Part shown: piece by piece, positions 15,842 to 59,884 of the stretch
How positions within the stretch are numbered: the stretch's first letter is position 1
Layout: every line of letters begins with the position of its first letter
Assembly: GCA_949825025.1 (NCBI GenBank)
Contig: OX463779.1
Span: 44,400,249-44,464,248, forward strand
From: Siphlonurus alternatus
Taxonomy: Eukaryota > Arthropoda > Insecta > Ephemeroptera > Siphlonuridae
Direction of reading: 5' to 3'
Length of the DNA: 64,000 bases
Made by a program: the position numbers and the translations under genes
Notes under the pieces: generated by a model
Told to the model about the DNA's origin: nothing
Database searches by the model: none
What the model saw: the letters and a program-made list of their open reading frames with translations, nothing else

Positions 15842-15849
15842 TTTATTTT
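15842..15849. repeat. 8-bp target site duplication (left), giant hAT element
   Basis: TTTATTTT lies directly before TAGGGCTG and is repeated exactly at 36513-36520 directly after CAGCCCTA. The sequence is low-complexity, so the match alone is modest evidence, but its position flush against both matching termini is what counts. Confidence 0.75.
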
Positions 15850-16500
15850 TAGGGCTGCTAATTTTAACCGGTTGATTAACCGTGCGGTAAAAACATCACG
15901 GTTAAAAGCTTTCTTACAAAATTTTTACTCGAGATTACGGTTAATTTAACCGAAATTCAAGTTAAACCGTACGTTGAACGTCGGTTAATTTGAATTACGG
16001 CCGGCTACCAATATTGACCGAACAATTTTCCGTCTCGGTTAAGCCTCCCCCGGTTAACCGCTATCCTACAAAGTTGGAACTTGCGTTTACGATTAACCGA
16101 TAACCGAAAATCCTTTAACCGATATCCGAATTGCACTTCTTCTTGACTGCGGTTAATTCTTAACCGGGTTAATTTGTGGTTTCATTTTAACCGCTTCACT
16201 GCAAGTTTGCATTTTAACCGATTTAGTTATATTTTTCCATTTCAATTCTCAATTAAATTTTAACCGTTTTAAACCGAGGTACACTATTTTAATCGTATTT
16301 AAAATTTGACCGTTTTAAACCGTTGTTAAACTTTATGATCGTCTCAACCGAAGTTACAAATTAACCATTAAAATGGTAAAAGTGTTAGTATTAACTTTTA
16401 AATGGGTACATTTTAATTGTGATTTTGAATTGAAAAATTTAACCACAATGTGAGTCGGTTAAAATGAAAACTCGCACTGAAGCGGTTAAAATAAATTAAA
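15850..16500. repeat. Left subterminal TTAACCG/CGGTTAA array
   Basis: By eye about 19 exact TAACCG or CGGTTA hexamers lie in these 650 bp, in both orientations, plus variants such as TTTAAACCG. Some are joined head to head as palindromes, for example CCGGTTAACCG near 16050 and TTAACCGGTT near 15865. Spacing is irregular, so this is not a simple tandem repeat. The motif falls off sharply after about 16500. Inferred role: transposase-binding sites of the enclosing hAT element. Confidence 0.75.
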
Positions 16501-17365
16501 AAGTACATTACACTTTCGATATTTTTAATTTGCTTAAGTAGTTTTAATACGGCGGTTTCATTACTACATTACATTTATAATTAAGTAAATAAAAGGCTCT
16601 TAAGAAAAAATCTGCGTAATATAAATAGAACAATTTTAATGATTTATAAAAAGTATAAAATGAGCCCGCGTGTAACTCTGCATGTAATAATACAGTATAT
16701 AAATATTAATATGGAAAAAATATTTATTATTATATGAAATTATATACATGATTATGTAAATAATGTTCTAAAAAATCGTCTACCACTCAATATACGGCTT
16801 TGTTAATCATCATGCCTTGTGTTTTTCTCATGTGGGGTGCGGTGATTTAGAAGACGGCGAAGGGAAATTTTTCGAGGCGACGAGTGTTCAATTTTTTATA
16901 TAATTTCTGTATCGAAGTAGTGTAGAAAAATAAAATATTTGCCATCAGTGCAATTTATATATTATATTTTAAAAAATGAAAAATAAACTTTAGTAAAATT
17001 TATTATAAATTGTTATCAGTTGAATTTGCTCAGAGTATTGATGGATGAATTTTAATACTTATTATATTGTTACAATGATATTATATAATATAATAAATAT
17101 ATCACTTTTACTTTAAACTTAATCGATTTTTAAATTTTTTTAATATCCCACATGGTTCATATGCCAAAAAATCAATTTATTTTATTTATTTTCAGTTACA
17201 GGAACTTAATTTTTTACACTAAATATCTTTAATATAATATATGTGTCAGTCTTGAAGCCAATTCGTGTCGGAATGTGATTTTTTTTTATCCCAACGCGTT
17301 GACTTGAAATTTCTGAAAGCTCCAATACGTTAGGATAAACATATATATTATATATATTATAAATT
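16501..17365. other. AT-rich non-coding interior of the giant element
   Basis: No gene or recognised repeat. Sequence around 17283-17335 (CCCAACGCGTTGACTTGAAA) loosely resembles a piece near 23950-24050, possibly an old interspersed repeat. Confidence 0.45.
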
Positions 17366-17718
17366 TTTTAATCAAACCCTATTAGGTACTTCTACTTGCT
17401 AATTACATACTACTTTGAAACCCCGAAACTTCCGAAACCCTAACTTAGCGTTTTAATTGCGGGCTCATCGAGAACGGGGGCGGAAACGGCCTTGCAATCC
17501 ATCCCGGCATTTGCCTGCGACTGAGGGAAACGTGGAAACCTCAGCCAGGATGGACGCTACAGCTTTTGACAATGAACCGTTGCAATTGTCCAAAGTCAGG
17601 GGAGCCACATATAGTGGAAAAGCGCAACAATTAACCCCTGGGTGGGAAACGTGTTTTTTGTTGAAAAGAGTCACCCATCCAATTACTTACTACGCTCGTC
17701 TCCCCATCTCGACACATT
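17366..17718 (-). mobile_element. 5S-rRNA-derived SINE with conserved core, copy a
   Basis: Read on the minus strand, the element begins with 5S-rRNA-like sequence ending TTGGATGGGTGAC, the 5S internal promoter C-box region. It continues through a body with TTTCCCACCCAGGG, a core with CTGGCTGAGGTTTCCACG and AAATGCCGGGATGGATTGC, and ends in a tail AAGTTAGGGTTTCGGAAG then TACCTAATAGGGTTTGATT and A-rich sequence. Copy b at 20262-20606 shares head, body and core; the window end carries the same tail. The overlapping short frames on both strands are not genes. SINEs with a 5S promoter (SINE3 type) are known in animals; the subfamily is not identified. Confidence 0.85.
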
Positions 17719-17734
17719 AGACATACAGGGAGGT

Positions 17735-18125
17735 ACAAAGCTACAAAGAGCCAGACACCGCACGCGGCGACACACAGGTGGCTGCATACCACCCTCACCC
17801 TAACTTTACTGGGAGGCATTAAACTCTCTGACCGCCACAAACCCTTTTCATTGTTGTGTTTTATTTGCAAGTTTAACAATTTTGAAGTCACAGGAAATAG
17901 AAAGAATTTTCTTTATATTTTATCCTGAATAAAATATTAATATTATTTCTCACAGTACTTTGTAGCAGTACGTGACTATTCAAAACTTGTTTAAAAACAC
18001 AACAGTGAAAAGGGTTTGTGTGACCACAGCCGACTGGGACTCTAGTCCAGTGAGACGCGGTCAGAGAGTTTATTGCCCCCCAGTACAGTTAGGATGAGGG
18101 TGCTGGTATTCAGCCAGAACCAAAA
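17735..18125. repeat. Pair of inverted repeats around a 120-bp spacer
   Basis: The segment ending about 17870 and the one starting about 17990 are inverted copies. Shared pieces are AAAAGGGTTTGTG, CGGTCAGAGAGTTTA and GCCCCCCAGTA or GCCTCCCAGTA, followed by GTTAGG(A/G)TGAGGGTG. The right copy contains extra sequence (CCGACTGGGACTCTAGTCC). It may be a foldback element or two oppositely inserted copies of one short repeat. Confidence 0.7.
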
Positions 18126-19768
18126 ACACTATATGTCACAGCCAAGTAACTAATCCGTCAATACATTGTTTTTCAGACTTTCATAGTGCAACGATTCACA
18201 ATATTTATTTCATGTGTTCCCCAATATCACCTTTACTTATAAGTAGTAGTATTTTATAACAAATTGATTAAATAATTTTTAAATTAAAAAAAAATATTTA
18301 TTTAAAGTATTTAAAAAAAAATGAAAGTATAATATTTTGAAGCACCTCGCACATCATTACAGTGTTTTGGTGATCCGGGCAAGAGCTTCAGTTTCCTGGA
18401 GTGTGGTATGGTTCTCCGGGAATCAGGTTGCTAATAGAGACTGGGAGGTAAGAAGAAGGGTCGCGTCATAAGGGGTTTTACAAGGACTTAAATTTGCAGC
18501 TTATACTGGTGCATACTTTCAATATTTTCATTATTCAAAATTTTTAATTGTTCATCCCTTCACGATATGTACACATACCCTTGATACCCTGGTTCCCACT
18601 GAAACTTCAATATTTTTTTCTAAATTGACATGGTAAATTTTTAAGCACTTTATCTTTCAAAAAATAATTTTCACAGCATAATCGATTTGAATGTACTATC
18701 AGCAAATCTATCAGTTTTATATAATTATTATTATAGTTATATTATCCAATTGTAAATAAATGGTAATAAAATAATTATATTACATTTTACAATATATATT
18801 ATTAACATTATTATATCAATATTTTGAATTAGCATTGTTTATTATAGTATAATATTGTTATTCAGATATTTTTCATATATTATAAGGATCCGAGAACATT
18901 AATGTTACAAACATTAAACAAACTACAAACTTTACACACTTTTTTCGTTTTATTGTGATGCCATAAAAATTTTATTTAATTAAAAAAATAAATTAATTTT
19001 GACTTAAAAACTATTATATAGCAAAGCGTATAGAGGTTTATAGTTTATAGAGGTTAATCAGCTGGTGGTTAAAGAGCATTTTACCTGCGCCGGTTGCATC
19101 GGCAAAGAAAGGGAGGGAGGGGCCGTGTGACGTTAGCGCGAGACCTGCAGCTAGCAGGTAAACCATTCTCCCCAGCAGTTTGCTGTGTTGTTGCAATGCT
19201 GTTTTCTTATAAAATTGCAACAATTAATATTTTGATGCAAATGTTTTTATTTCACTATCTAACTAATTAGTCTCTATAATTTCTCTGTATCGTTTATGTT
19301 ATGCAGTTATTAAAACGCTAGACTGCTTGAGACAGCTTGTGACAGAATACATGGAGTATAGCTATAACATGCATGATTTAATGGCTTAATTTCAACGAAT
19401 AAATGAATTTAAAATCATTGCTAAAATAAATAATTGATTTTAAAAAAATACTTATTTTTGTAAAAATTCTTCAGTTTGGAGATAAACTGTAGATTCATTA
19501 ATGCATTGCATGATTCACAATAAATTCCTATATAGTAGCAAGTTGGTAAATAAACGTAAATCAACGTAAGGCGTAATGATCAGACATATACTTAGTAAAT
19601 TTATATTATTTTACCTTTGGTGTCCTGGTGCTCAATGTTGCCTTGTAAAATATTCTACCATTTTTCCTGTAATTAATTAATTACTGGATTACTGCAATAA
19701 CTTATTAAATTTAAATGTATATTAAGAAATGTATGTTGATGACAAAAAATATGCAAAAACAGCATTCA
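18126..19768. other. Non-coding interior with one GC-richer patch
   Basis: The patch at about 18340-18490, containing GGTGATCCGGGCAAGAGC, is unusual in composition but matches nothing I recognise. Another small patch lies at about 19080-19170. No gene is supported. Confidence 0.45.
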
Positions 19769-20178
19769 GGGCATTGGGTGTAGCACCGGTAGTTGGCAGC
19801 ACTGACGTATCTTCACCATGTTAATTTTTGATCATTGCTCCTCGGTGTAATTTTTATGCTAGAGCTAAGCTGATTGCTGTAGTATCAAGATAATTAGTAG
19901 CCCAAGTGCACAATTTGGCTAAATAAAGCCTGATTTAAAGAAAAGTAATTTTTATTAATTTTTTAAATTTACATGCACTTTTCTAAAATATAAAAAAAAT
20001 ACTTTTCTTTAAATCAGGCTTTATTTAGCCAAATTGTGCACTTGGGCTACTAATTATCTTGATACTACAGCAATCAGCTTAGCTCTAGCATAAAAATTAC
20101 TCCGAGGAGCAATGATCAAAAATTAACATGGTGAAGATACGTCAGTGTTGCCAACTACCGGTGCTACACCCAATGCCC
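19769..20178. mobile_element. 410-bp near-perfect foldback element
   Basis: Two arms of about 180 bp are nearly identical inverted copies around an AT-rich loop of about 50 bp. The ends are GGGCATTGGGTGTAGCACC and its complement. Pairing continues unbroken through TTGGCTAAATAAAGCCTG. No convincing target duplication is visible, so the superfamily is unassigned. It ends about 85 bp before 5S-SINE copy b. Confidence 0.9.
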
Positions 20179-20261
20179 TTAAAAAGGAAAAAGTCCATAG
20201 AGGTACAAGTATATACAGTATAAAGCCGAACAAGATACAAATTAAAAAATAATAATAATAA

Positions 20262-20606
20262 TTGGTGTGGCGCAGAGCGCTTGACCGGATCTCGTCAGAT
20301 CACCGAAGTCAATCAACGCCGAGCGTTGTTAATAGTAGTTGGATGGGTGACCATTTTCAACAGAAACAATGTTTCCCACCCAGGGCTAAATCATAGCGCT
20401 TTTCTACCATGTGGTTACTCTGGTCTTGGATCATTTCACTTCCGGTTCTTTGACAAAAACTGTAGCGTCTATTCTGGCTGAGGTTTCCACGTTTCCCTCA
20501 GTCGCAGCCATCACAGACAAATGCCGGAATGGATTGCATGCAAGGTCGTGGCCGCTCTCGATCCGATGGGCCTGCGAAATCCTCAAGTTAGGGTTTCGGA
20601 AGGTTT
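20262..20606 (+). mobile_element. 5S-rRNA-derived SINE with conserved core, copy b
   Basis: The head carries an extended 5S rRNA match: GATCTCGTCAGATCACCGAAG, followed by CAACGCCGAGCGT and ends in TTGGATGGGTGACC, covering the A-box, intermediate element and C-box of the type 1 pol III promoter. The preceding GGCGCAGAGCGC is not 5S and looks like an extra tRNA-type A-box. Body, core (CTGGCTGAGGTTTCCACG) and the start of the tail (AAGTTAGGGTTTCGGAAGG) match copy a, but the end of the tail is missing. Short frames across it are not genes. Confidence 0.9.
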
Positions 20607-20984
20607 AAAAATTTAAATTGTAAGATATTATTTAAACTAAAATGATAAATTTTATGCAATTAATTGGAATTTAGTTTATTATACAAAGCAAATATTTTAA
20701 AACAGAGAACTCATTTCGTGAAACGGACATCCACTGCAATTTATATATATTTTTTACGTTATACATATAGTTGTTGTGGAATATGTTTAACTATTTAAAA
20801 TTTAGAGATATTAATATATAAAATATAAAGTGTTCTGTGAGTTTTACTTCCAGTAAAATAATAATATAATAATGTACAAAAAATGCGCATTTTTTTTAAT
20901 TTTATTGTATTTTTAGGAACAAATATTTTAAAGTTAGCTTTTTAATTTTATTACACTATTTTTTCTTTTATCCATTTTTTTTTG
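20607..20984. other. AT-rich non-coding interior
   Basis: No gene or repeat is recognised between the two SINE copies. Confidence 0.5.
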
Positions 20985-21190
20985 TAGGGTACTTAAATAG
21001 GTCGCAAGTGAAATTTTTCCTGGCTCTTCATGGACCCGAACTAGCCTATTGCTCAGGGTTTTGTGGATCCCTTCCCCCTTCAAAATCAGACCTGCTTCTA
21101 TAGCAATCCATCCCAACATTCGGCAGGCTGAAACTGAGGAAACCATGGAAACTTCAGTCAGGATGGTTGACAATTGATGGAGGTTGTTGA
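20985..21190 (-). mobile_element. Core-sharing SINE remnant, copy c
   Basis: On the plus strand GCAATCCATCCCAACATTC, then ACTGAGGAAACCATGGAAAC and TCAGTCAGGATGG match the complement of the core domain of copies a and b. The flanks differ from those copies, except for a TAGGGTACTTAAATAG piece reminiscent of their tail. It therefore shares only the central core with the 5S family. The 99-residue minus-strand frame here is not a gene. Confidence 0.65.
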
Positions 21191-22011
21191 CATCAGTGTT
21201 GATATCAATATAATTTTTTATACCTTCATACATTTACTTTATTTTATATTTCATGAATAAAAAATCAAGCCTTGGGTATACTGTATTGCATGGACTCAAT
21301 ACACACAATAAATAAAATAGGTGAGTAAAAATAGTTCAGAAAATATTCCTCCTCTTATAAAATTTGTCGCTATGGTTCAATAACGGATTAGTTAAAAAAA
21401 AACTCTATTATTATACAAACCCTCAAATATATATTATATATATATATATATTTATTAAATACATATAATATAGTACTTATATTTTATATTTGTACATCAG
21501 GTAGAATGGCATTGATCAGTCGCCTCTCCCAGGGACAGAATGACGGTCGATTCACTAAAACTACTTTTCATTCTGACTTCCTGATCACAATCTTTGTATT
21601 TTATGTTAACAAAGGGAAGTAACATTTATGTACTTGCGAACACGTGACGGCAGGTAACGTTCCCATCAGTATAGCCCCTGTGTCAAGTGACGTGGTGACG
21701 TACTGTACGTGGAAACAAAGCTGCAACTATTTCCCATTCTTGCCTTGACGACGGTAGGTCATTAGTGATGGTGCGTCCGTTTCCGGCTCAAAATCACTCA
21801 AACATATTCAGTATTCAATAGATATGACAAATAAAGCCAAGTATAATATATATTTTTATTAAAAATGCCTATTGACAAAACTTTTCAAAGTCTTTATCCA
21901 AAGTATAAAGAATTTTTTTCATTAATTAGCCCTCGGAGTCTTTGGTCGTTTATTATTATTTTTTCTTGCGTGGTATATACAGTATAACAATATATTATAA
22001 ATTATAAGTTA
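21191..22011. other. Non-coding interior with (TA)n and a GC-richer patch
   Basis: A short TA tract lies near 21430-21455. A patch at about 21500-21800 is less AT-rich, with two CACGTGA/GACGTGG-like sites, but is unassigned. Confidence 0.45.
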
Positions 22012-22143
22012 ATGGTCAATGAAGTTAATGAACATGGTTTTAAGTACTCAGCTCAAAGATTTTATAATAATTTACCTGAGGATACTAAAGTGAAGAAAAC
22101 ATTTGTATTTATAAGAAAAAAGTTAAGTGTTAATTATTTTTAA
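22012..22143 (+). pseudogene. Reverse transcriptase C-terminal remnant
   Basis: A short frame ending at the stop 22141-22143 reads FKYSAQRFYNNLPED then KVKKTFVFIRKKL. The arrangement of an aromatic residue, N-N-L-P, then a basic stretch with a phenylalanine about 12 residues on is the usual end of non-LTR retrotransposon (or related) reverse transcriptases. No catalytic FADD region is present upstream, so only the 3' tip is retained. Followed by about 180 bp of possible 3' UTR. Confidence 0.5.
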
Positions 22144-22980
22144 AGAATGTGTACAAAATTGACGATTTTTTTGAGAAAGACTTAATATTTAACAAACTTT
22201 AAGTGCAATGTAATTACTATGTATTGTTGACTTGTCTTTTAGAAAGATTAAAATTTTTTTAATTGAATTGAAGTACTAAAATATTGTGTTTTTATCTTTC
22301 TGTATGCATTTTCTGTACCATTCATGTTAATAAAATGTCAATAATTCTGAGAATTTACAAGACTACAAAATAATAACTGTCCAAATTTAAGGGAACTAAT
22401 TTTAGCATTGTGCCATTGTGAATTTACTTCAATATGTTTAATGCGCAGCTCCTTATAAAAATCTGAGCAGTTTGCTACTACAAAATATATATTATAAATA
22501 TAATATATGAATATATAATATACCATTAAATTAAATTTTTATGTGCCTTATACTTCATATGAGGAAATAAAATAATAAAATATCATGCCTTCAAATGTAA
22601 AAAACAGACAAAAACATAAAGTAAAAGAATAACGAGGTATTACGCGCTTTACCGACTGCATGTGCTACAGTTGCTACACGCAGTCTTATGACTTATGAGA
22701 ATGTTGTGCGCTATAGTAAAAATCATATAAGAGAATCATTTTTTCACCCCTCTCGCAACGCTACAGGATAGGAATATGAACCTTGTGGACGATTTTCGTA
22801 GCTGACGCGTGGTATATCCCTATATCCCACGGTCTAATTAAAATTCAAATATTTTTTTCATCAATTTCCAAGCATACAAACACAAACATTATAAAATGTA
22901 GCACTTTGAATGAAGGGTTAGACTCGTCGAAAACAAAACATATTTAAAAATATATTACTAATAAATAACATTATACACTA
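22144..22980. other. AT-rich non-coding interior
   Basis: No gene is seen. A possible 3' UTR of the preceding retrotransposon remnant, then unrecognised sequence with a small GC-richer patch at 22635-22820. Confidence 0.45.
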
Positions 22981-23230
22981 GAATTTAAATTGCAAATAAG
23001 CCTTCACACTATAAAAACAACAATCACTTAGAAGCGTTCTCACTGATTTTTTAAAATCTTTGTAATTTGACAATTTCCTTATACAAAGAGGTAGCTTATT
23101 ATACCTCCTATTAGTCTTGCTCCTGAACGTTAGGCAACCCGCACGCGCTAAAATCTCGCAATTCAAATTGTCCATTGCCAATATTTTCCTAAGAAACATT
23201 ATCATAAAAACGTGCATATAAGTATATAAG
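22981..23230 (-). pseudogene. Second reverse transcriptase C-terminal remnant
   Basis: The minus-strand frame contains RRYNKLPLCIRKLSNYKDF then KKSVRTLL, the same tail pattern as the remnant at 22012, with the L-P-x-x-I-R signature. Only about 60 residues look family-like and the catalytic domain is absent. Upstream, the frame runs into antisense 28S rRNA at 23238-23323, so the 114-residue open frame is a chimera and not a functional protein. Confidence 0.6.
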
Positions 23231-23237
23231 CCCCGGT

Positions 23238-23323
23238 GAGGGTCGCAACGGTGAGCGCTGAAGGGTATGGGCGTGAGTCTGCCTGGAGCCACTGTCGGTG
23301 CAGATCTTGGTGGTAGTAGCAAA
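23238..23323 (+). rRNA. 28S rRNA fragment (sense, about 86 bp, pseudogene)
   Basis: GAGGGTCGCAACGGTGAGCG, then GGGCGTGAGTCTGCCTGGAG and GTGCAGATCTTGGTGGTAGT followed by AGCAAA match my recollection of a conserved block of animal large-subunit rRNA. The match stops at AGCAAA on the right and near CCCCGGT on the left, so it is a short captured fragment and not an rDNA unit. A search against LSU databases would settle its exact limits. Confidence 0.75.
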
Positions 23324-24256: not shown

Positions 24257-24264
24257 ATGTGTCA

Positions 24265-24425
24265 CAGGCGCGGATCCAGGGGGTGGGCTGAGAGGGCTGT
24301 AGCCCCCCCCCCCGAAATTTTTGATTTATCATGGGCAATATAGGTATTTCCCCCACTCCAATTTTTTTTTAACATTGGCTTATGGACGCAACCCCTCCCG
24401 AAAATTTTTTCTGGATCCACGCCTG
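24265..24425. mobile_element. Non-autonomous hAT element (MITE 2), nested
   Basis: This 161-bp element has ends CAGGCGCGGATCCAG and CTGGATCCACGCCTG as inverted repeats with one mismatch. The 8-bp sequence ATGTGTCA occurs on both sides (24257-24264 and 24426-24433). Duplication length and the CAGG...CCTG ends fit hAT. The interior has runs of C and matching AAATTTTT pieces and encodes nothing. Its insertion lies within the giant element, about 0.5 kb upstream of the transposase start codon. Confidence 0.9.
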
Positions 24426-24433
24426 ATGTGTCA

Positions 24434-24957: not shown

Positions 24958-25214
24958 ATGTCCAGCAAACCCAGTGATGTATGGTCACATACTACAAAAA
25001 ACTCAAAAACAAATCGCGTCAAGTGTAATTATTGTGATAGAGATTATGCTTATTCGGGTGGATCAACATCAACAATATGGTACCATCTCAGAAAACATCA
25101 CAAAGAACTCTTGGACCCACAACCATCGACATCCACAGCAGGGTATGCAGGAGTCGCGAAGCAGCCGTTGACGCAACCAACGATGAAGGACTTCGCATCC
25201 TCAACGGAAAAAAG
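24958..25214 (+). CDS. hAT transposase, exon 1 (BED zinc finger)
   Basis: The exon encodes residues 1-85 plus two bases of codon 86. A BED-type zinc finger spans about residues 5-52: W9, C23 and C26 in VKCNYC, and H43 with H47/H48 in WYHLRKHH. BED fingers bind DNA and in hAT transposases recognise terminal or subterminal sequences. The start ATG follows CAGTAAG, with no in-frame BED sequence upstream. The frame stops at 25216 unless spliced; AAAAG|GTAATT at 25214/25215 is a good donor. Joining to the acceptor at 30645-30646 gives AG+A (arginine) and continues in frame into the transposase. After the finger comes a serine/threonine/proline-rich linker. This is one exon of a 756-aa protein. Confidence 0.85.
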
Positions 25215-26508
25215 GTAATTAACGTCTATATAAGATGTTTATTGAAATCAAATTCTTTACTTTAAGAAAAAAATTAATGCAAAAAATCACATCATAGTTT
25301 CAATAATTTGCTGCTTTAATTTTGTTAACTTAATATAATATATATTTAAAAATCCCAAGACTTGAAATTCACATTACAATATATTTCTCTCATCATGTTC
25401 AGAACAAAACGCAGATGAAATATAAATTACGAACTTTCAATTTAAAACGAATTGATTGGCAAAAAAAAAAAATAAAAATAAAAAAGATTTCATATTAAAT
25501 TAAATAAAGAATTTAATGTACTTTACAAGTTTGTAAGTTGATATGAAATAAGTTTAAATAAAATTGTGATAGCATAATAATAATTAAAACAGTACAAACA
25601 GTTTCCGATTGTAAATTCATTTTTTTTTTTTTTTTTTTTTTTTTACTCTTAATAATTTTTTATAGCTATTTAGGAAAAGGTAACACGTCCAAGATTTAAA
25701 AAATTCACGTAAAAATTGTAAGAAAATTTAAAATATTTTTCCATACATCCTCTATATATCAGTAGCGAAAATATCATATTTAATATTTAAATTCAAGTAG
25801 TTTTTGAATTATGAATTATTTGACTAATTTAACATGGAAGTTCCATTTCTTTATATTTAAATCAGTCAACTTTAAAAATTCACAACAAAAACTAGCTTGA
25901 ATTTGTATACCTGATGTTTTAGCTACAGATAGGGGATGTAGAGGAGAACATATTAATTGCTAATTGTTTTCATGATTTTCGAGTGATAGATTTTCTTATA
26001 ACGTTGGGCTTGTTATCTGCCCCTTCATGCATTGTTGATCATTTTTAACTTGGATATTATTAAATAATTATATTAAAAATGTGAAACAAGTTTTAAAAAT
26101 TGCAGTTCACGCGCTGTTTAAAGTATAAATAATATTTGCGTCAGGATTTAGTAATTTAATGTAACGCTGTAAACTATTTCCATACATCTTTCGGTATTTG
26201 TACAATTTTGACAACAAATATACATAATTTCAGTGATCAAACGGATATTCAAACGATTGCAAATAGAGGCATTTTAGCTTCTTATCTGGTTTTTCTTTGA
26301 TAACAATCTTTAGTGACAAAGCATGCAGTTTGTTCGCCGGACCCTTGTATTTATGGCAGAAATATTTCTATTGAAGAACATTAAAATATTTGTAAATTTT
26401 ACAATAAAATAATTGTATTTAATCATAAGGAGTTTGTTCAGCGCTATTTCACCATCCTATTATTGCAATGAATGTATTTAAGTATCAAGATTTGACAGGA
26501 AAGATAAG

Positions 26509-26575
26509 TCCCTACTGGGCATTGCACCCAGGGACGGGGGTTGATTATCGGTCCAGGTGCTCTACCAGATGTTGT
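26509..26575 (-). pseudogene. tRNA-like remnant (possible SINE head)
   Basis: The minus strand reads TGGTAGAGCACCTGGACCG, an A-box-like D arm, followed by GGGTGCAATGCCC, an imperfect B-box/T arm with a 4-5-bp stem. A tentative anticodon loop CCGATAA would give GAT, isoleucine-like, but the 3' half of the anticodon stem is degraded and acceptor pairing is lost. It is most likely a decayed tRNA pseudogene or tRNA-derived SINE head. Confidence 0.5.
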
Positions 26576-26696
26576 TACTTGTATACATGCATTGCAATAA
26601 TTGGATGGCGAAATAGTACTCAACAAAATCCTTAATATAATTTAAATCATGCTTTCCAGTTAGAAGTAGAACTACAAAAAAAAATCTTGTTTTAAC

Positions 26697-26738
<42 letters not shown>

Positions 26739-28032
26739 TTAAGTCGTGATAATTAACATTAACTTTACTGATGCTGTTTATTATAGAATAATTATATTAT
26801 TTGACAAAATTTATTAAGACGGGTTTCATCATTAAACATTTTGATTAAATTTATTTACCTATTTCTTGATATGTTTGATGTTGTACTTATTCTGAAAAAA
26901 ATAAATACATAAAGAAATAAAATAGTGGTAAAACTCCAAATGATATAATATGAATGATTGTTAGTTTTACGGAGTACTTTGATACGTGGTGTGTTTATTT
27001 AAAAATACATTAAAACTGGTCAAGCTGCAGTGCTTGAAATATATATATTTTTTATTACAATTATTTATTTATATACATTGTAGTAAATTCTATGATAAAT
27101 AATAATGGTGGAAATAGTGGTTAATTATTAAAGTGTTAAATTATATTATTATAAATATACATTTTTAATTTTTATGTTATTATTAAAAAACTAGTTTTCA
27201 CAACAATGCAGTATTTTTTAAATGGATTTAATTATAAGAGATTTCGTGTTTCACCTGCAATGCACGAACAGGTCCATCTGTTTATGAATAAGAATGCATT
27301 GATTATGCATTTACGAACAGACTTATCTTTACATATTATATGCTCCTGCGCTGTGATGCATGTACGCAGCATATGGCTCTCGGTATATTTATGAAAGTTG
27401 TAACAGTTAAAACTTTATTTGTCATGTGAAAGAATCCTTCTAATCAAGATGTTTTATTTATTTAAGTTGCAAGAATACTACTGTACTACAGCATTATATG
27501 ATAATTAAGGCACAACTGTTTACAATGAAGGTTGATCTCAATAATTGTTGCTTCATAAAAAGTCAAAAGAATTTGAAATATAACATATATTATACACAAA
27601 ATTCAACTCTTCATGTGTGTTCCTGACATTTTATTCATCGTGGAATAATAATTTATCATTATTATTTACTTAGACTTGCGTAAAACATTTTACAATACAC
27701 ACTATCGTTACTAAGCTGTATGCTTTGAAATTAATACATTCATTTTATATTGAAAATTTGTGTTTATTACTCATTAAGCATTTTCATATATTCTGGAGAA
27801 AAAAACAAGACTCCTAATTAAAAAAAAGCAAAAACAGTAAATAAATTAAGTGTGTTATTTGGATCCAGATCTTAATATTGCAAACTCATTCAGTGCGCTT
27901 AATTGTGCGGGTCTAGACTTGCATAGGTCGCTCCATTACGTCATCGGCTAGGGCGAAGTTAGTCCGCGTGGCTAACAGTGACGTTTATTACTTTTGAAAA
28001 CAATATAAATGTGTTCGAATAAAAATTACCTA

Positions 28033-29640
28033 ATTAATGCACTAATTTGTTTTTCGCTTTATTTAATTTAACGGTAATAAATAAACATATATCATTGTTA
28101 TGCCATGAATTAACATAGTATAATTGTATTCGAATCAAATTTTTTTTCATCTATACACATAATAAATAATAAACTATAATGTTTTTACTCGATATCGTAT
28201 TAAAATATCAAAGTATACAAACGACGTGTTGGTAACATAATCGCTACAACTCTTGTTATATATTTTTCTTGTTATATGTATTACAACACTGTTAAAATGT
28301 TTATTTTTGTTTCATCCACGCATTTTTGGCGGAACGCTCAGTACCATCTCATATTCAGGAGATTTCTAATACTTTAAATAAAAAATTAATTTAATTATAA
28401 GTTGCATAATAGTTTCAGAATTTTCAGTAGTCAGTATATACTGTTTGGAAGATAGCATTTAATTGAATTAATGTTTATGAAATTTTATAATAAATAATTA
28501 TGTGTACATCTCGAACCAGCAACTGATGGCCGGGACCACGCAGGTGTCATATCTTTACGTGAACTGAAGGTATAATAAAACAAAATTATTTAAATTTATA
28601 AAACCATGCTTTTAGGATTAGTGAACTTGGTGCATTCAAGAAAAATATACTAGTAATTTTTTAAAATTTGAGAATTTAATTATAAATTATTATTCTTAAT
28701 TATATTGATAGTGCATGAATCATCGTAATGCTTGCTTATGCATTATCGAGATATTTTTATTAATTTTTGGTTTAAAAAAAATAAATATATATTATATATA
28801 TATATTTTTTTAGATTTTTAATATTCAAATAATTGTTATATTTTTATTATCCATTAGTAGGTGTAATAATTTAAAAATATTGTCAGAATATTTGATTAAA
28901 TGCAATCTATAATCACTATAATCATACTTCACTAATCCTTAATGCATGGTTTTATAAATTAAAATAAAATCATATTTTTATTATACCCTCAGTTCACATA
29001 AAAGATATGACACCTGCGTGGTCCCATCAGTTGCTGGTTCTAGATGTACACATAATTATCTATTATAAAATTTCATAAACATTATTTCAATTAGATGCTA
29101 TCTTCCAAACAGTATAATATATACTGACTACTGAAAATTCTGAAACAATTATGCAAACTAATAACAGTAATAACTAAATTAATTTATGATTTAATGTTTG
29201 AAATCCCCTGAGTATGAGATGAGATCTCCTGAGCGATTCGCTATGCATAAATGCAATGATCGATAAACATTTTTACAGTAATGTAATGTCATGTTATATT
29301 ATGAGACAATTAACGAGAGATGTAGTGATGTAGTGTTTGTAGAATTTATTATTTTTTGACATGATATCGAGTGACAATATTATAATTAATCATGTTTTAT
29401 GGTAGAAAAAATATTTGCTTTGAATACAAATAAAATATGTTAATTCATTGCTTAAAGATAATTATGTCTATTAATAATTGCCAGTTATTTAAATAAAGCA
29501 AAAAGGAAAAACCATATGCCGATATTTATTTTTTCTCTCTATTTATAATTCAAGTGAAGAAATAAAAAAATAATTTCGTGAACTGTGTAAAATACTTTTT
29601 TTATATTTTGAAGGATAAAATTGTAACAAATTAGTGCATT
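28033..29640. repeat. 1.6-kb imperfect inverted repeat centred at about 28780
   Basis: Several blocks pair symmetrically about 28780: 28402-28575 with 28985-29157 (for example GTTTCAGAATTTTCAGTAGT), CTCATATTCAGGAGATTTC with its partner near 29200-29230, ACTCGATATCG with its partner near 29360, and GCTTTATTTAA with its partner near 29495. The outermost block GCACTAATTTGTT pairs near 29630 with an offset of roughly 110 bp. The centre is TA-rich. It is probably a large foldback element with diverged arms; no coding sequence is present. Confidence 0.8.
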
Positions 29641-29659
29641 GGGTATATTTTCAAAAATT

Positions 29660-29880
29660 TATTCTAACCAGCACTATATGAGACCGCAAAAATTTCGAAT
29701 ATGATTTCGTATCGTATGACTTCGTATGATAAAAATTTAGAACCGGTTCTAAATGAGAAACTTACGATGTCATACGATACCATGCGAAGCTGTGTGCGCG
29801 CGCATACCTGATCGCATAGTTTCTTAATTTTTTTATCATACGCTGCAAAATCATGCGATGCTGTCTGCGAATAGCCTAAT
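29660..29880. repeat. Dispersed repeat family B, copy 1
   Basis: Shared with 50505-50725: ATGACTTCGTATGATAAA, AATTTAGAACCGG, ATGAGAAACTTACGAT, CGATAC(C/G)ATGCGAAGCTGTG, TTCTTAATTTTTTTATCATA and CGCTGCAAAATCAT. The segment is dense in CGTATGAT/ATCATACG motifs in both orientations, so the ends are partly inverted. Non-coding. Confidence 0.75.
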
Positions 29881-30240
29881 CCGTCGTCCGACCGTAACGC
29901 TATTTAACGCATGGTGCAGATCCAGCTCGCGGCTCTTGGGAGGGAGTTGGGTCGTGGCGGTGCCGTTCCCGCAAAGTGTAAATTTAGAGTGGGAGGGAGT
30001 GACGGGTGGGAGGTGCTAACACCTTCAATGTATTTTGGACCTTTTGTTTTGGGGGGGGGGGGGAGGAGGGGCAATTGCTCTAATCGCTTCCCCTTTGACT
30101 CGCGCCTCTATAACCCAATGTAATTAACTATCACTGCTAGCTGCGTGGCCTGCTTACTTAAATTCGCCCTAACACAAGAAACAGATGATACAACAAAGCG
30201 ACCTATGGAAGTCTAGATCCCCCTCCTCCGCAAATTAAAG
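29881..30240. other. GC-richer patch within the intron
   Basis: The patch includes GGGAGGGAGTTGGG and a run of about 13 G at about 30049-30061. The 70-residue frame here has no recognisable domain. It could be an inserted retroposon body; unassigned. Confidence 0.35.
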
Positions 30241-30537
30241 CACCCTGAATGCGTTTGTAATAACAAGATCTAGACCATTTTGTAAAGTATATTGCATTGT
30301 ACTATAAGCTGCATTAGTCTTGTAATAATAATAATTAAAAAAACAAAGTTAATCAGTATGTAATAAAAATGTATTTGTAAGTGCTTAATTGGCAGCATAC
30401 TTGAGCGCAGCGCCCATGCGCAGCATTGACGGGCAGGCAGGTGAAATGTTTTTTTCACAACGATCAGAAATGAACTTATTAAATTTAAAGATTTTATTTT
30501 TAATATATATGCATACTTAATTATATACACATATTTC

Positions 30538-30539
30538 GC

Positions 30540-30606
<67 letters not shown>

Positions 30607-30611
30607 TTTTA
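30538..30611. repeat. (TTTA)n microsatellite before the splice acceptor
   Basis: About 18 TTTA units end 35 bp upstream of the acceptor AG and directly precede the region where the branch point and pyrimidine tract should lie. Confidence 0.9.
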
Positions 30612-30646
30612 TTTGTCTATTTAACACAATGCTCGTTTTGTTTCAG

Positions 30647-32660
30647 AACCATCCAGAATACAACACAGCAAGCTGTCTCGGCAGAAGATGAACCTGAAGT
30701 GGAAGTCGTCACACCCGACCGTTCATTCGTATCAAACGCCCGTCCAGATTCCCCATTAACCTCTCCCGTGACTTCTCGCGCTGCACCTGAGACACCTGAG
30801 ACCCCAACAACAAAAACAAAGCAAAGCAGAATATTATTAACCTCCCCTAGGCTGACTGACCGTTTTATGGGTAGGGTGGTTATGGCAATTGCAATTTTTA
30901 TTGCAGTTGACATGGTACCCATAGCAATTGTCCAAGGTGCAGGTTTTGTAGCAATGCTTAAGTTCATGTTAGGTGATAAATTCAATGTCCCTTCTCGGTA
31001 TACAATAATGAACCATTTAAAGCAACTTGAGAGACAAGGAAAAGATTTTGTTAAAAATACTTTAAGTGTAATTGAATTTCTCAACATTACGACTGATGGA
31101 TGGACGTCACGTGCTTTGCATGCTTACTTAACAGCTACTTGCCATGGAATAAACGATTCATGGGAGCTAATAGCATTTACATTATTTACATGTGAGTTTC
31201 CTGATCGTCATACTGCTGTAAATATATCCGACAAAATAATAAAAAAACTCGAGGAATTTAACATTCAAGATAAAATTCTTAGTACTACACACGATAATGC
31301 AGCTAACATAACTTTAGCCGTCACAAGTTCAGAACAGTTAGGAGAGAGTAACCCATGCTTTGCTCACACTGAAAATTTGTGTATACAAAAAGTTCTTAAA
31401 TATGAGCCAGTGAAAATTTTGTTAAAAAAATGCAGAAAGTTAGTTGGTTTTTTTAAACATTCGACTCGAGCAAACGAAGGTCTTAAAAATGAACAAGTCA
31501 AGCAAGGTATTAAAAAAGGTGCATTAGTGCAGTTTTGTGTTACTCGCTGGAATTCATATTATGACATGCTAAAGCGCTTGGTTGAGCAAAGAAATGTAAT
31601 TAGTGCCGTTCTTAACGATAAAACTTACGTTAAAAGAAAAAAGGGAAAAGCACTTCGTCTTAGCGACATAGATTGGGATATGGTAGAATCATTAATCGAG
31701 ATAATGGCCCCATTTGCAGAAACCTTAGAAACATTATGTGCAGATCAAGTAGTTACAATATCCATGGTTAGACCCACTGCATATTACCTTCTTGACCATG
31801 TTAGACCGAATGCAGAGGATAGTGTTTTTATTAAAAAAACGAAAGAAACTCTTGCAGAAGAAATAAATACTCGCTTTAAAATTACTGTTCCTTGGTTCAC
31901 CGCGTTAAAAGAACAGCAACAACAAAACAAGGAAAATGACTCATTAGAAACCGACGTTGAACAACCAGCATCTAGTAATAATAAAGACAAGGTGGTCCAT
32001 CCAAATGAGGTTCTTAGCATGTTAGATGACCCCTTGGACGCAAGTGACGTAGATAGTGTAATAAGCGAAGAAGATAGTGATACTGAAACAACTGATGATC
32101 CTCAGCCACCAGGCGAGGAGGCCCCACCACCAGCAACCGGACCATCCGTTGCTCAAATAGCTTCTTTTTTAGACCCACGATTCAAAAATCTGCTTTTTGA
32201 AACAGTTGATGACCAAGTTAAAATTGAGCAGCATGTTAAGTCATTATATGAGAAAATCGAGCAGGATACAGACATGAACGAGAGTGTCGAGCAATTAGCA
32301 AAGCAACAAAAAACTGTTGCCATATTGAATAGAATAGCGAGATCAGTGGGATTTTATCGCTCATCAAAATCAGAGTTTGAAAAGTATCTTGATGAAGAAC
32401 CATGCAATGCAACTGATGATCCGTTATTATGGTGGAAGGGAAATGAAGCACGTTTTCCTAAAATAGCTAAGTTAGCCAAAAGATATTTATCAATTCCAGC
32501 CTCCTCTGCTTCATCGGAACGTGTATTTTCCACTGCTGGTAATATCGTTTCTGTAAAAAGAACGTGCTTATTACCAGAAAATGTGGATATGCTCGTATTT
32601 TTAAACAAAAATCCCTGTACCATACAACACATGTACGAATTAGCTCCCAAAAAATCGTAA
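30647..32660 (+). CDS. hAT transposase, exon 2 (catalytic core and dimerisation domain)
   Basis: The exon completes codon 86 and encodes residues 87-756, with the stop TAA at 32658-32660. After an acidic, proline/threonine-rich linker comes the RNase-H-like core. The first aspartate is D236 in TTDGWTS and the second is D302 in THDNAANI. The hAT CxxH (C323, H326 in CFAHTENL) and RW (R386, W387 in TRWNSYYD) motifs follow. An acidic low-complexity insert covers about 510-590. The C-terminal hAT region has PASSASSERVFSTAGNI with the expected catalytic E710. No frameshift or stop interrupts it. It resembles ZBED-type hAT transposases and is probably a nuclear cut-and-paste enzyme of the enclosing element. 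A frame starting at GTG 30699 is only the 5'-truncated reading; splicing to exon 1 explains the open codons before it. Domestication as a host gene is an alternative. Confidence 0.93.
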
Positions 32661-32773
32661 ATCAATGCATATATGCATGTACTTTTTTGTTTATGCTGTA
32701 CAAAAGTTTGAATTTGTTGTTCCATTTTAGTTTTCTTTAAATTTATTTCATGATAATTTTCTGCTCTTACCGC

Positions 32774-32779
32774 AATAAA
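32774..32779 (+). terminator. Likely polyadenylation signal of the transposase gene
   Basis: AATAAA occurs about 115 bp after the stop codon, in CGCAATAAATTATAAG. It is the first clear hexamer downstream. Confidence 0.55.
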
Positions 32780-32923
32780 TTATAAGAATACTAATAAAAT
32801 AAGATATTAATAAATAATAATAATTTGAATTTGATTTAATATTGAAAAGTGTATAATATATATTATATTTTGTAATATATATATAATAAACTGGATTTAA
32901 TTAATTATAAAATTGTAATTATA

Positions 32924-33153
32924 AGGGGCATTCACAAAGTCTTAAGGCCACATTTAAGGCTCGACAATTTAAAGCTTGATTTTAGACGTGTTTTTTAGAC
33001 CCAAAATTTCTGGTCTTAAATTTTTGAGCCTTAATTGTGGCCTTAAGACTCGATAATTTAAAGCTTGATTTTAGACGTATTTTTTAGACCCAAAATTTCT
33101 GGTCTTAAATTATTGAGCCTTAAATGTGGCCTTAAGGCTTTGTGAATGCCCCT
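32924..33153. mobile_element. MITE of the GGGGCATTCACAAAG family, internally duplicated
   Basis: The ends AGGGGCATTCACAAAG and its near complement CTTTGTGAATGCCCCT are followed by inverted CTTAAGGCC pieces. TTATA flanks both sides. The interior is a tandem duplication of about 105 bp containing AAGCTTGATTTTAGACGT, each unit itself bounded by inverted AAGGC/GCCTTAA pieces. It lies about 260 bp after the transposase stop. Confidence 0.85.
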
Positions 33154-33783
33154 TTATATGTTTAATTTGTAGTTGAATGTAGTTTCTGACATCTGGTATC
33201 AAAAAACTTGCCTACTTTTACAATAAAATTGAAATGTGAATGAACAGCATTATGTAGAAAATACATAAATTTGATCATTTTAGGGTAATATTTTTTATTT
33301 CATTTTGTGCAACTTCTCATGTACTTTTTTTTATAATTTCTTAAATACTACTAATTTATATATATGCTAAATATTTAATGGAAATTTTTTCCTTTTCTGT
33401 TTTATTTCAAAAATGTTATAATAATCACTGTAGTGCTAATACTTTGTAAGTTTTTTTATTTTTATATTAAATTAGGAGGGGATAGTAAATAAATGCTTGA
33501 CGTTTAAACCTTTAAATGTGTAAAACATGACATGAAATGTAAATATTGGTGTAGATAAATGCAAGTTGGAATGTTTTTTAATTAAAATGAACTATAATTA
33601 ATTATAATTTCTCTATTTTTTTTTAAATCTGAACCTTTCTTTACCCGAATAAAAAGTGCACATGACAAAAATTGTTGTGTACTTTTTATTCTGGTCACTC
33701 TTTAACATTTTTTATCTATATATAGTTTCAGTTGAGTAGGGGAATTTATAGCTCTAAATTATATCATAATATAAATAATAATA

Positions 33784-33922
33784 TGCCTCCTCCGCAATAA
33801 TGAGCTGTCAGCTATTTAGCGCAATTATGAACTGTAAATTTTAATTATTATTATAACGCTCATATTTGTGCTTACCTGAAACAGCAGATAACTCATTATT
33901 GCAATGAGATCGTGGGAGGCAG
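33784..33922. mobile_element. Small imperfect foldback
   Basis: The left end ATGCCTCCTCCGCAATAATG partly pairs with CATTATTGCAATGAG and GGGAGGCA on the right. The motif ATAACTCATTATTG is then repeated once more just outside. A degraded MITE is likely. Confidence 0.5.
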
Positions 33923-34429
33923 ATAACTCATTATTGTAGAAAGGGTCGATATATGTATGTATATGTAGTGATACAACTGATACAAGCTATAATTTTTGTT
34001 TTTACAGAAAGTAATACTTAATTGTTATTATCACATGGTAACCTAATACATTATATCTCCTCTCAATTTTATAGTTATATATAATAAAAAGAGAAAGTAA
34101 TTTCATTTTAAAAACGTTTCATTATTCGTGATTAAATCCATATAAATTTTCTTAAAAATGTAGATTCTAACATCCTGATTTTTTTGAAAAAATAATTTGA
34201 TTAATTAATGTATTATTTGTTTATTTGTGATTATACATCATAATAAATTATTAAGTACACCTTAATACCATTTTTTCATCAACAAGAGAGAAAGAGGGGG
34301 AGGGATAGACTTTTAAGTTAAATTAAATAGCCCCTAAGCAATCTTAATAAAAAGATTACACGGATCAGCTGATTGACGTAGTCTTATTTTATTACCATGT
34401 AAAAAATTTCTGAATTTCTGAGACAAAGT

Positions 34430-34780
<351 letters not shown>

Positions 34781-34989
34781 TTTAAAGATTGATTGGCTGA
34801 TATTTTGAGGCAATTGACACATTTTAGAAGATCCATAATTTAATTTATACAGATCTATAATACATATCATGGTTATTATAGTTAAGGTTAAAGTAACACG
34901 AAACAGCTGATTTTGTAGTTCCATTTGATTAACATATAAACCTTAGCGACCTCATATTAATTCAGTTTTTTTTAATTTATTTTTTAGAG

Positions 34990-35260
34990 ACAGTCCTTAC
35001 TAAAATGTTGCAGAAAAAATTTCCCATTGAAACGAGCTTCTTTTTTACCCCAGAAAACATCTTTCAATTTTTTAAATAAGTGTTAGTTAAGGATTTAATT
35101 TTTAGGGGTTGGTATTTTTACCCCTTAATGTTGAAATTCTTGAATGTCTCCGATTTAAAAAATTCAAAGATGTTCTTCGGAGTAAAAAAATAAGTTAGTT
35201 CCAATGGGAAATTCAAAATTAGGATAAAATTATTTTTTTAACGTAGTAAGGGTCAATATC
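34990..35260. mobile_element. Imperfect foldback element
   Basis: CCTTACTAAAATG to TTTCCCATTGAAAC on the left pairs with CCAATGGGAAATTC to GTAGTAAGG on the right. The inner pairs ACCCCAGAAAACATCTTTC and GATGTTCTTCGGAGTAA also match in part. Diverged arms indicate age. Confidence 0.6.
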
Positions 35261-35440
35261 TCGTTATGGGTTGTTTTCATCACATTTTGAATTACATCAT
35301 TAGATCCAGATTTAGATCACCCCCTACAAATAAAATTGATTGCTGATTGGACAAAATATTTCTATCAACTTAATTTAACATGGGAATCCCATTTTAGGAA
35401 GTAATGCAAAACATGAATCCACCCCTAAAAAGGCGTGTAA

Positions 35441-35594
35441 AGCCGGTATTACACGATACAATTTTTCTGAATATTGCAAACAATTTTTCCTTACAAGAAA
35501 AATTCATCTCCATACAAACAAATGGAGTTCAAGTTTTCTTGTAAGGAAAAATTGTATTCAATAGTTAGAAAAATTTTATCGTGTAATACTGGCT
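35441..35594. mobile_element. 154-bp MITE with TAA duplications (PIF/Harbinger-like), relative of 9112
   Basis: The left end AGCCGGTATTACACGATAC matches the MITE at 9112, and the right end GTGTAATACTGGCT is its inverted partner. TAA flanks both sides (35438-35440 and 35595-35597). The interior adds a second inverted pair, TTTTCCTTACAAGAAAA and TTTTCTTGTAAGGAAAA, absent from the 76-bp copy. Non-coding. Confidence 0.85.
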
Positions 35595-36019
35595 TAAGAG
35601 TGATTTTAAAAAAATTCTAACACATATAATATATAATTTATGTCAAAAAAATTTAAAATCCTTCGCTTAATTATGTATGCCAAATTTCAACTTTCTAGCT
35701 GAAAGCTAGTCCTCCCGCCGAAAATTAAGCGTATGATCGGAACACCATATCTGACCTTGTCTGTAAATATATATACAATATTATATACAGTATATATATA
35801 TACATATATATATATATACATATATATATACACATATATATTAATATTATTTATTAGAATTTCTTTATAAAAAATTTTATTTTATTTATAAAAATGACTA
35901 AAATCTATTTTTTTTATAGTATTAAATTATTATATAGCTATAGTGGTAACAGCCTACTGAATAACAACTAAATTTTAAATAAGAGTAAATGAATAAGGAG
36001 ATATTATAACCTCTTGATG
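35595..36019. other. AT-rich non-coding interior
   Basis: No gene is seen. A TA/TATACA-rich tract lies at about 35766-35842. Confidence 0.5.
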
Positions 36020-36512
36020 AATGTTAAACGATTAATTATATCACCCTTTTCAGGAAAATAATCGTTTAATCGTATGTTAACCGTTCGAGTAAATTAATCG
36101 CTTGATTAATTAAACCGTGTGAGTAAATTAATCGTATAATAACCAATTGATGAAATTAACCGTATGAGTAAATTAATCGTATAATAACCGTTTGAGTAAA
36201 TTGACTGATTGAAATATTTTAACCGATTTAAGTATTGCATTTCATTAGTTAAAAGTAGCCGCAAAATTAGCAACGTTAGCGAATTGCAAATAAATAACCG
36301 ATGCGGGAAGTTAACTATCTCGGTTAATTTAATCGATGGTTTAAATTAACCGACTCATTAAAATTTAACCGATTACAATTAGACGGGTTTTTTAACTGAT
36401 CAAACATTTTCAGATTAATGGGCGGTTATAAACCGAACATCGGTTTGATTAAAACCGGTTAGAAAATTGACGGTCACCGGTTAAACAATTTTGTCGGTTA
36501 TTTACAGCCCTA
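36020..36512. repeat. Right subterminal TTAACCG/CGGTTAA array
   Basis: By eye about 12 exact TAACCG or CGGTTA hexamers lie in roughly 490 bp, with several TTAATCG variants. Part is a local tandem repeat built on GAGTAAATTAATCGTATAAT (about 36088-36200). Motif orientation is mixed and density is highest near the terminus CAGCCCTA. It mirrors the left array, which supports both being parts of one element. Inferred role: transposase binding. Confidence 0.75.
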
Positions 36513-36520
36513 TTTATTTT
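36513..36520. repeat. 8-bp target site duplication (right), giant hAT element
   Basis: TTTATTTT directly follows the terminal CAGCCCTA and is identical to 15842-15849. Confidence 0.75.
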
Positions 36521-59843: not shown

Positions 59844-59884
59844 GTCGGTCATATTGATATAAATATTTTATATTCATACCAAAG

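What the first reader, a model, noticed from the sequence alone, without database searches (positions are those of the whole stretch)
15842..36520. A 20.7-kb hAT transposon with matching termini, 8-bp duplication and intact transposase
TAGGGCTG/CAGCCCTA termini sit flush against identical TTTATTTT copies 20.66 kb apart. Each opens inward into a TTAACCG array, and an uninterrupted BED-hAT transposase lies between. hAT elements are normally a few kb, so this could be an undescribed giant hAT lineage carrying mostly non-coding cargo.
Basis: partly seen in the sequence, partly recalled or inferred. Interest (0 to 1): 0.9.

Follow-up and report, generated by a model that had tools for sequence, protein, structure and literature searches.

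The report
Giant hAT transposon that moves whole
A cut-and-paste jumping gene of the hAT family, a kind usually 2.5-5 kb long, is present here as a 20.7-kb unit stuffed with other repeated DNA, and a near-identical copy at a second place in the same genome, bounded by a different 8-bp target duplication, means the swollen unit has likely jumped whole, predicted to be driven by its own intact transposase.

Summary
TAGGGCTG/CAGCCCTA termini at 15850 and 36512 sit flush inside two TTTATTTT copies, and all 25 TTAACCG/CGGTTAA in the 64 kb lie in the two ends. The host genome decides the matter. Among the 40 scored of 230 candidates for each end, full-length ends occur at only two loci, the window and contig C5. 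The C5 copy differs by 0.66% substitutions over 20.4 kb and is flanked by its own TSD TTATTTTT, with no flank homology found. The transposase core likewise has two close matches, these two, both open. 170 other exact left tips exist; 25 of 28 fetched short relatives have both termini and identical 8-bp flanks. Corrections: the BED finger is on a separate exon 5.4 kb upstream. The bulk is non-coding as far as Pfam shows; at least 4.2 kb is dispersed repeats already present before the two copies separated. Empty sites were sought but not established. So this is an intact, recently mobile, nested-insertion-swollen hAT: a new variant of a known kind. That its own transposase moved it is inferred.

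The parts
15842..15849 (.). left target-site duplication TTTATTTT
15850..16520 (+). left end: terminus TAGGGCTG plus subterminal array of 18 TTAACCG/CGGTTAA (19 TAACCG/CGGTTA), starting with near-palindrome TTAACCGGTTGA 15-26 bp from the tip
   Evidence: full length elsewhere only on C5 among scored candidates
17426..20605 (.). inverted-arm repeat inside the element (arms 17426-17698 and 20320-20605, 224/293 identical); related sequence at 63856-63999
   Evidence: shared with the C5 copy
19765..20182 (.). 418-bp foldback repeat; all 38 other scored genomic places match it, mostly 98-99% identical
20700..23177 (.). dispersed repeat stretch made of several families (20700-20981, 21017-22690, 22028-22286, 22833-23104, 23114-23177)
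   Evidence: coordinates
24958..25214 (+). transposase exon 1 with BED zinc finger (E 4.7e-8), predicted splice donor GTAATT
25215..30646 (+). predicted 5,432-bp intron, holding dispersed repeats at about 25668-26028 and 29695-29881 and an inverted-arm repeat at 28051-29504
30647..32660 (+). transposase exon 2: DDE catalytic core and hAT C-terminal dimerisation domain; predicted spliced product 756 aa
32920..33158 (.). palindromic repeat with internal 89-bp tandem unit (one unit fewer in C5)
34544..34784 (.). palindromic repeat next to a TA array
35021..35856 (.). dispersed repeat (38 other scored places, 83-86% over its first 420 bp) interrupted by a second nested palindrome at 35440-35595, past which many of the other copies run without a break
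36030..36512 (-). right end: terminus CAGCCCTA plus subterminal array of 7 TTAACCG/CGGTTAA (12 TAACCG/CGGTTA)
   Evidence: full length elsewhere only on C5 among scored candidates
36513..36520 (.). right target-site duplication TTTATTTT

Best explanation
The 20,663 bp from 15850 to 36512 are one autonomous-looking hAT transposon, present in two near-identical copies with different 8-bp target duplications, which has likely been cut and pasted whole at this giant size by its own predicted BED-DDE transposase. Shown: termini, TSDs, subterminal arrays, transposase reading frames that are open in both copies, and a common interior with nested repeats at the same places. Inferred: an ordinary hAT took in other repeats between its ends and within its intron; because the ends and the exons stayed intact it stayed mobile, and at least one jump took place after the swelling. 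Inferred from Hermes: BED fingers of a multimeric transposase bind the TTAACCG arrays, bring the two tips together across 20 kb, cut at TAGGGCTG and insert with an 8-bp stagger at targets that favour T at position 2 and A at position 7.
For: Exact TIR/TSD geometry, 0 of 200 simulated windows. The C5 copy 39419506-39445973 has its own TSD TTATTTTT on both sides; the alignment stops at the termini apart from a few A/T-rich bases (window 15846-36531). 135 substitutions in 20,423 aligned bases. Full-length left and right ends at these two loci only, of 40 scored of 230 candidates each; the transposase core closely matched at these two only, 35 of 35 candidates scored. Transposase open in both (756 and 755 aa if spliced as predicted). 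Hermes fills the 12 best fold matches. Nested repeats sit at the same positions in both copies.
Against: No transposition was observed. Only two giants were found, so a single jump may account for the data. The empty-site test was inconclusive: the right flank belongs to a dispersed repeat, but left of the TSD the other copies resemble the window by only a few A/T-rich bases. The transposase could be inactive and the move made in trans, although the next closest gene is only 52% identical and carries a TGA. hATs are described as 2.5-5 kb, and DNA transposition is said to drop over 6 kb of cargo. The splice is predicted, not seen in RNA. The two giants' own TSDs lack the A at position 7. One assembly only.
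Confidence: 0.86

Rival explanations
1. Macrotransposition: the outer ends of two neighbouring short elements were used together, carrying the host DNA between them, as reported for Ac/Ds in maize.
For: An Ac/Ds macrotransposon carried as much as 100 kb (passage of PMC3260210), and short relatives with both ends are common here.
Against: No internal ends survive: TAGGGCTG and CAGCCCTA each occur once in the window, and once each in the 34.7 kb of C5 examined. The tips differ from the short family (85-87% left, 76-82% right), and the open transposase lies inside. It could still be how the ancestor arose.
Confidence: 0.07
2. Two unrelated partial hAT ends that happen to share an 8-bp flank, with an unrelated transposase gene between.
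For: TTTATTTT is common here (41 copies on this strand), so the flank match alone is weak, and no empty site could be established.
Against: The same pair of ends with the same interior and another perfect TSD exists on C5.
Confidence: 0.01
3. A segmental duplication or assembly duplicate made the second copy, so giant-size transposition never happened after the nested insertions.
For: Only two copies, about 0.7% apart.
Against: Different contigs, no flank homology found, homology ending at the termini, different TSDs, and two further large inserts in C5 only.
Confidence: 0.02
4. The element is real but its transposase is dead; it was moved in trans by the transposase that spread the short relatives.
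For: 172 exact left tips carry the same tip motif, so some transposase mobilised the short family; a 52% relative exists on C11.
Against: Both giant copies keep open frames, and the window copy keeps the conserved catalytic positions. The C11 gene has a TGA, and the one TAGGGCTG end seen 5 kb from it has a different subterminal array.
Confidence: 0.08

Closest known systems
Hermes (hAT superfamily)
   Same: DDE fold (12 best structure hits); 8-bp TSD (recalled); BED finger binding subterminal repeats, with a quasi-palindromic STR pair at LE 11-27 (passages of PMC10368747) much like TTAACCGGTTGA at 15-26 here
   Different: About 20% identical in the fold alignment; a different subterminal motif; here the element is 20.7 kb with a predicted 5.4-kb intron between BED and core
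Maize Ac/Ds and Ac/Ds macrotransposons
   Same: TAGGG-type terminus (recalled), many subterminal hexamers (AAACGG in Ac), TSD consensus nTnnnnAn (recalled as Ac-type), precedent for hAT ends moving large DNA (passages of PMC3260210)
   Different: Ac is 4.6 kb; macrotransposons use ends of two separate elements; here one pair of ends encloses the transposase
ToxhAT/ToxTA (14 kb, fungi)
   Same: Large unit with cargo once filed as hAT
   Different: Has a TA TSD and is now re-filed as likely Tc1/mariner-like and non-autonomous (passages of PMC12506042)
Enlarged En/Spm (CACTA) elements of Chondrus crispus, 16-20 kb
   Same: Oversized cut-and-paste elements
   Different: Other superfamily; they harbour 4-5 ORFs instead of 1-2 (passage of PMC6431247)
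Teratorn and Maverick/Polinton giants
   Same: Large DNA transposons with TIRs
   Different: Carry viral or replication genes; here a six-frame Pfam scan of 15850-35500 finds only BED and hAT-dimer domains

Membership tests
hAT superfamily | 8-bp target-site duplication | tested here: met
   Both giants, perfect and different; 25 of 28 short relatives
hAT superfamily | short TIR of YAGGG type | tested here: met
   TAGGGCTG/CAGCCCTA, 8 bp exact; shorter than the 10-25 bp quoted in PMC3942097, within the 5-27 bp quoted in PMC12506042; the YAGGG rule is recalled
hAT superfamily | transposase with hAT C-terminal dimerisation domain | tested here: met
   PF05699 E 4.1e-24
hAT superfamily | N-terminal BED zinc finger | tested here: met
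   PF02892 E 4.7e-8 on exon 1; joined in frame by a predicted GT-AG splice
hAT superfamily | RNase H-like DDE catalytic residues | tested here: met
   D236, D302, E710 of the predicted spliced protein, invariant or at least 90% conserved in the 40-sequence alignment; Hermes fold; that these are the catalytic ones is recalled from Hermes
hAT superfamily | usual length 2.5-5 kb (descriptive) | tested here: not met
   20,663 bp and 26,468 bp; size is a description in PMC3942097, not a defining criterion
Ac group of hATs | TSD consensus nTnnnnAn | tested here: met
   T at position 2 in 24 of 27, A at position 7 in 18 of 27; consensus recalled; 25 of the 27 are short relatives, and the two giants' own TSDs have T, not A, at position 7
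Ac group of hATs | transposase falls in the Ac clade | not tested
   No reference Ac, Buster or Tip transposases were in the tree
Ac/Ds-type macrotransposon | two flanking elements with internal ends | tested here: not met
   No internal TAGGGCTG/CAGCCCTA in the window or C5 copy
Maverick, Teratorn, Starship | DNA polymerase B, viral genes or tyrosine recombinase | tested here: not met
   Six-frame Pfam of 15850-35500 finds none at E<=0.1; 35501-36512 not scanned

The most novel reading that the evidence does not exclude
The giants are a hAT lineage adapted to large size: their subterminal arrays are longer than those of the short relatives and hold about twice as many sites (31 versus 10-18 TAACCG/CGGTTA, reaching 639 and 435 bp inward), and this extended BED-binding platform lets the transposase pair ends across 20-26 kb, so the element can grow by swallowing other transposons and still carry them to new places. 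It would be a eukaryotic cut-and-paste element that acts as a vehicle for other mobile DNA.
Probability: 0.25. Interest if true: 0.8.

Novelty: new variant of a known kind. Interest (0 to 1): 0.62.

Why it matters
Cut-and-paste DNA transposons are thought to pay a steep price for length (PMC6431247, passages), and one large element once called hAT (ToxhAT) has been re-filed elsewhere. Here is a hAT with one pair of ends and the transposase inside, at 20.7 kb, in two copies less than 1% apart with different target duplications. It gives a natural system for asking how a hAT transpososome pairs ends 20 kb apart, whether long subterminal arrays compensate for length, and whether nested transposons travel as passengers.

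Tried and rejected
Chance pairing of ends: rejected (0 of 200 simulated windows; C5 copy). Gene cargo: six-frame Pfam scans of 15850-35500 found nothing but BED and hAT-dimer domains. Rfam on the window: 0 matches. Relatives in viral contigs: none. First genome pattern search used a wrong spacer length and its zero means nothing. C11 relative as a third giant: TAGGGCTG end found, no partner end with a matching TSD in 60 kb. C5-only inserts: no Pfam domain in the 3.28-kb insert nor in the first 1.57 kb of the 2.6-kb insert (the rest was not scanned). Host identification: not achieved; ten chosen flanking ORFs gave only two sub-cutoff Pfam hits. Literature: listings showed no giant hAT of this kind (open-access PMC only, by title and abstract); one search found no paper holding any two of its four terms (the two terminal motifs, the array motif, hAT). 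For PMC10368747, PMC12506042, PMC3260210, PMC3942097, PMC6431247 and PMC8232201 I saw search passages only; other papers only as listings. The repeat share (4.2 kb dispersed, 8.6 kb with inverted-repeat structures) is a lower bound because only 40 candidates per query are scored; it leaves out 25668-26028, found.
Full report
CHECK OF THE OBSERVATION. The termini, TSD and coordinates are as described: TTTATTTT at 15842-15849 and 36513-36520, TAGGGCTG at 15850 and CAGCCCTA ending at 36512. Each terminus occurs once in the window. All 25 TTAACCG/CGGTTAA in 64 kb lie within the two ends (18 left, 7 right), where about 0.13 are expected. A search for YAGGG 8-bp inverted termini flush with identical 8-bp flanks at 1-30 kb finds only this pair, and 0 in 200 simulated windows. 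TTTATTTT itself is common (41 on this strand), so the TSD alone would be weak evidence.

THE TRANSPOSASE. The ORF 30699-32660 has the hAT dimerisation domain (PF05699, E 4.1e-24) and matches Hermes by sequence (E 3.5e-26). A model (mean pLDDT 83) has Hermes as its 12 best structure hits. It has no BED finger. That lies on a separate ORF at 24958-25214 (PF02892, E 4.7e-8). A donor GTAATT after 25214 and an acceptor TTTCAG ending at 30646 join the two in frame to 756 aa; with that acceptor the three neighbouring donor positions tried break the frame. The splice is predicted. D236, D302, C323, H326, W387 and E710 (spliced numbering) are invariant or at least 90% conserved in an alignment of 40 sequences. 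The closest proteins found are P0001 and P0002 at 50-53% identity, and the three form a supported clade (100/99); a profile search added no closer relative (both searches scored 7,993 candidates).

THE SECOND GIANT. The host assembly has 455.7 Mb in 102 contigs and no name; the window is C2:44400249-44464248. The 651-bp left end has one other full-length match, C5:39419506 at 99%; the other matches listed, apart from each giant's own inverted self-match, cover only the first 100-117 bases at 85-87% (40 of 230 candidates scored). The 483-bp right end likewise matches in full only in the window and C5 (40 of 230 scored). Fetching C5 shows one unit of 26,468 bp, C5:39419506-39445973, bounded by TTATTTTT on both sides, collinear with the window element from terminus to terminus. 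135 of 20,423 aligned bases differ by substitution (0.66%). Comparing 1.85 kb of left and 2 kb of right window flank with 5.2 kb and 3 kb of C5 flank, no match of over 60 bp at 80% lies beyond the termini. C5 has two extra inserts, about 3.28 kb next to the left array and about 2.6 kb in the intron, about 68 extra bases near window 25375, and one fewer 89-bp tandem unit. Its transposase is open, 755 aa if spliced alike, exon 1 identical and exon 2 99.3% identical. In the whole genome the core protein has two close matches, these two; next is a 52% relative on C11 with one TGA, then matches of 30% or less (35 of 35 candidates scored). The BED exon was not searched on its own.

EMPTY SITES: INCONCLUSIVE. 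The window flanks joined with one TTTATTTT were searched against the genome: 32 of 32 candidates matched, two being the window's own flanks. Of the other 30, 29 run across the junction with at least 3 bases beyond the TSD on the left and 20 on the right; the thirtieth starts at the TSD. Six were fetched, a chosen sample, and align across the junction. But a recheck shows that the shared part is nearly all to the right, around TATYATCTCTTTCATGGGCAC. To the left only one of the six (L065) matches well, 7 of 8 bases, and among 79 control TTTATTTT sites in the window the best also reaches 7 of 8; in four of the six the A/T run holds overlapping TTTATTTT copies, so the count of one (non-overlapping) does not stand. 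So the right flank is a dispersed repeat; whether other copies show the uninterrupted target is not established. I do not count this as evidence.

THE SHORT RELATIVES. The exact tip TAGGGCTGNNAATTTTAACCGGTTGATTAACCG occurs 172 times, 0 in the reversed control; of the first 100 places listed, only the two giants bear CT at the variable place and 96 bear TA (the other 72 were not listed). Of 28 short copies fetched, 25 have both exact termini and identical 8-bp flanks at 849-1,460 bp, the partner end being chosen within about 3.1 kb by its flank match; three gave no full pair. They share about 102 bp of the left tip (85-87%) and about 170-250 bp of the right (76-82%) with the giant, so they look like a sister subfamily, not direct deletions of these two copies. 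Over 27 TSDs, position 2 is T in 24 and position 7 is A in 18, the nTnnnnAn pattern I recall for Ac-type hATs; the giants' own two lack the A.

THE CARGO. Six-frame Pfam scans of 15850-35500 find only BED and hAT-dimer domains (the last kilobase was not scanned). Among scored candidates the interior exists whole only in the two giants, but pieces are host repeats at the same places in both: the 418-bp foldback 19765-20182 (38 other scored places, mostly 98-99%); several families in 20700-23177; about 25668-26028; 29695-29881; and 35021-35856, itself split by a palindrome at 35440-35595 past which many of the other copies run without a break. These, without 25668-26028, total 4.2 kb, or 8.6 kb with other inverted-repeat structures, of 20.7 kb. 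Since only 40 candidates are scored per query these are lower bounds. The coding sequence is 2.3 kb and the ends 1.15 kb, so about 8.2-8.6 kb has no assigned origin. The repeats were present before the two copies separated, so the swollen form is what moved.

MECHANISM. Likely, by analogy with Hermes (passages of PMC10368747), several BED fingers of a transposase multimer grip the TTAACCG arrays. In Hermes two sites form a quasi-palindrome at bases 11-27 of the left end; here TTAACCGGTTGA sits at 15-26 of the left end and has no counterpart at that place of the right. Cleavage at the tips and insertion with an 8-bp stagger follow. The giants' ends carry 31 TAACCG/CGGTTA sites (counted in the window copy) against 10-18 in the 25 short copies. 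Within the first 250 bp the numbers are alike (10 and 8 against 6-10 and 4-9), so the arrays are longer, not denser. That this helps pair distant ends is a hypothesis. A maize macrotransposon shows that hAT ends can move as much as 100 kb (PMC3260210), so length is not a bar in principle.

NOVELTY. hATs are described as 2.5-5 kb (PMC3942097); a review of giant transposons did not contain the word hAT in my whole-word search and says DNA transposition drops over 6 kb of cargo. The listings of my searches of open-access papers showed no such element. It is a member of the hAT superfamily on every defining feature tested; its size, long intron and nested cargo make it a new variant of a known kind.

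Noticed in passing
8181-8552: A separate 372-bp hAT-like MITE: TAGGGATGGGCGATACC inverted termini and perfect 8-bp TSD ACGAGGAC.
   Followed up: no
L031 about 899-4182 (G000 C5:39420198-39423481): C5-only insert of about 3.28 kb at a TTAA with CCCTCGCG-type inverted ends (piggyBac-like by recall); no Pfam domain in six frames.
   Followed up: partly
G000 C11:30110878-30112758, L051-L056: A 52%-identical transposase with one in-frame TGA; a TAGGGCTG end 5 kb downstream carries a different subterminal array (AGCTCGAAAACGAGCC-like); no partner end found in 60 kb.
   Followed up: partly
54151-54628 and 59881-60589: Tandem arrays: a 52-bp unit x 9.1 (96% matches) and a 177-bp unit x 4.0 (88% matches).
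   Followed up: no
36513-36545, and about 30 other genomic places: The right flank of the insertion is part of a dispersed repeat with a conserved block TATYATCTCTTTCATGGGCAC of unknown identity; its left boundary lies near the TSD.
   Followed up: partly
40990-41381: A foldback of about 392 bp (88% arms) outside the element; 39933-40215 resembles part of it.
   Followed up: no
48106-48561, minus strand: Sub-cutoff Pfam match to PigN (E 1.8e-4, 20.9 bits against a cut-off of 25.4); probably not a real gene.
   Followed up: no
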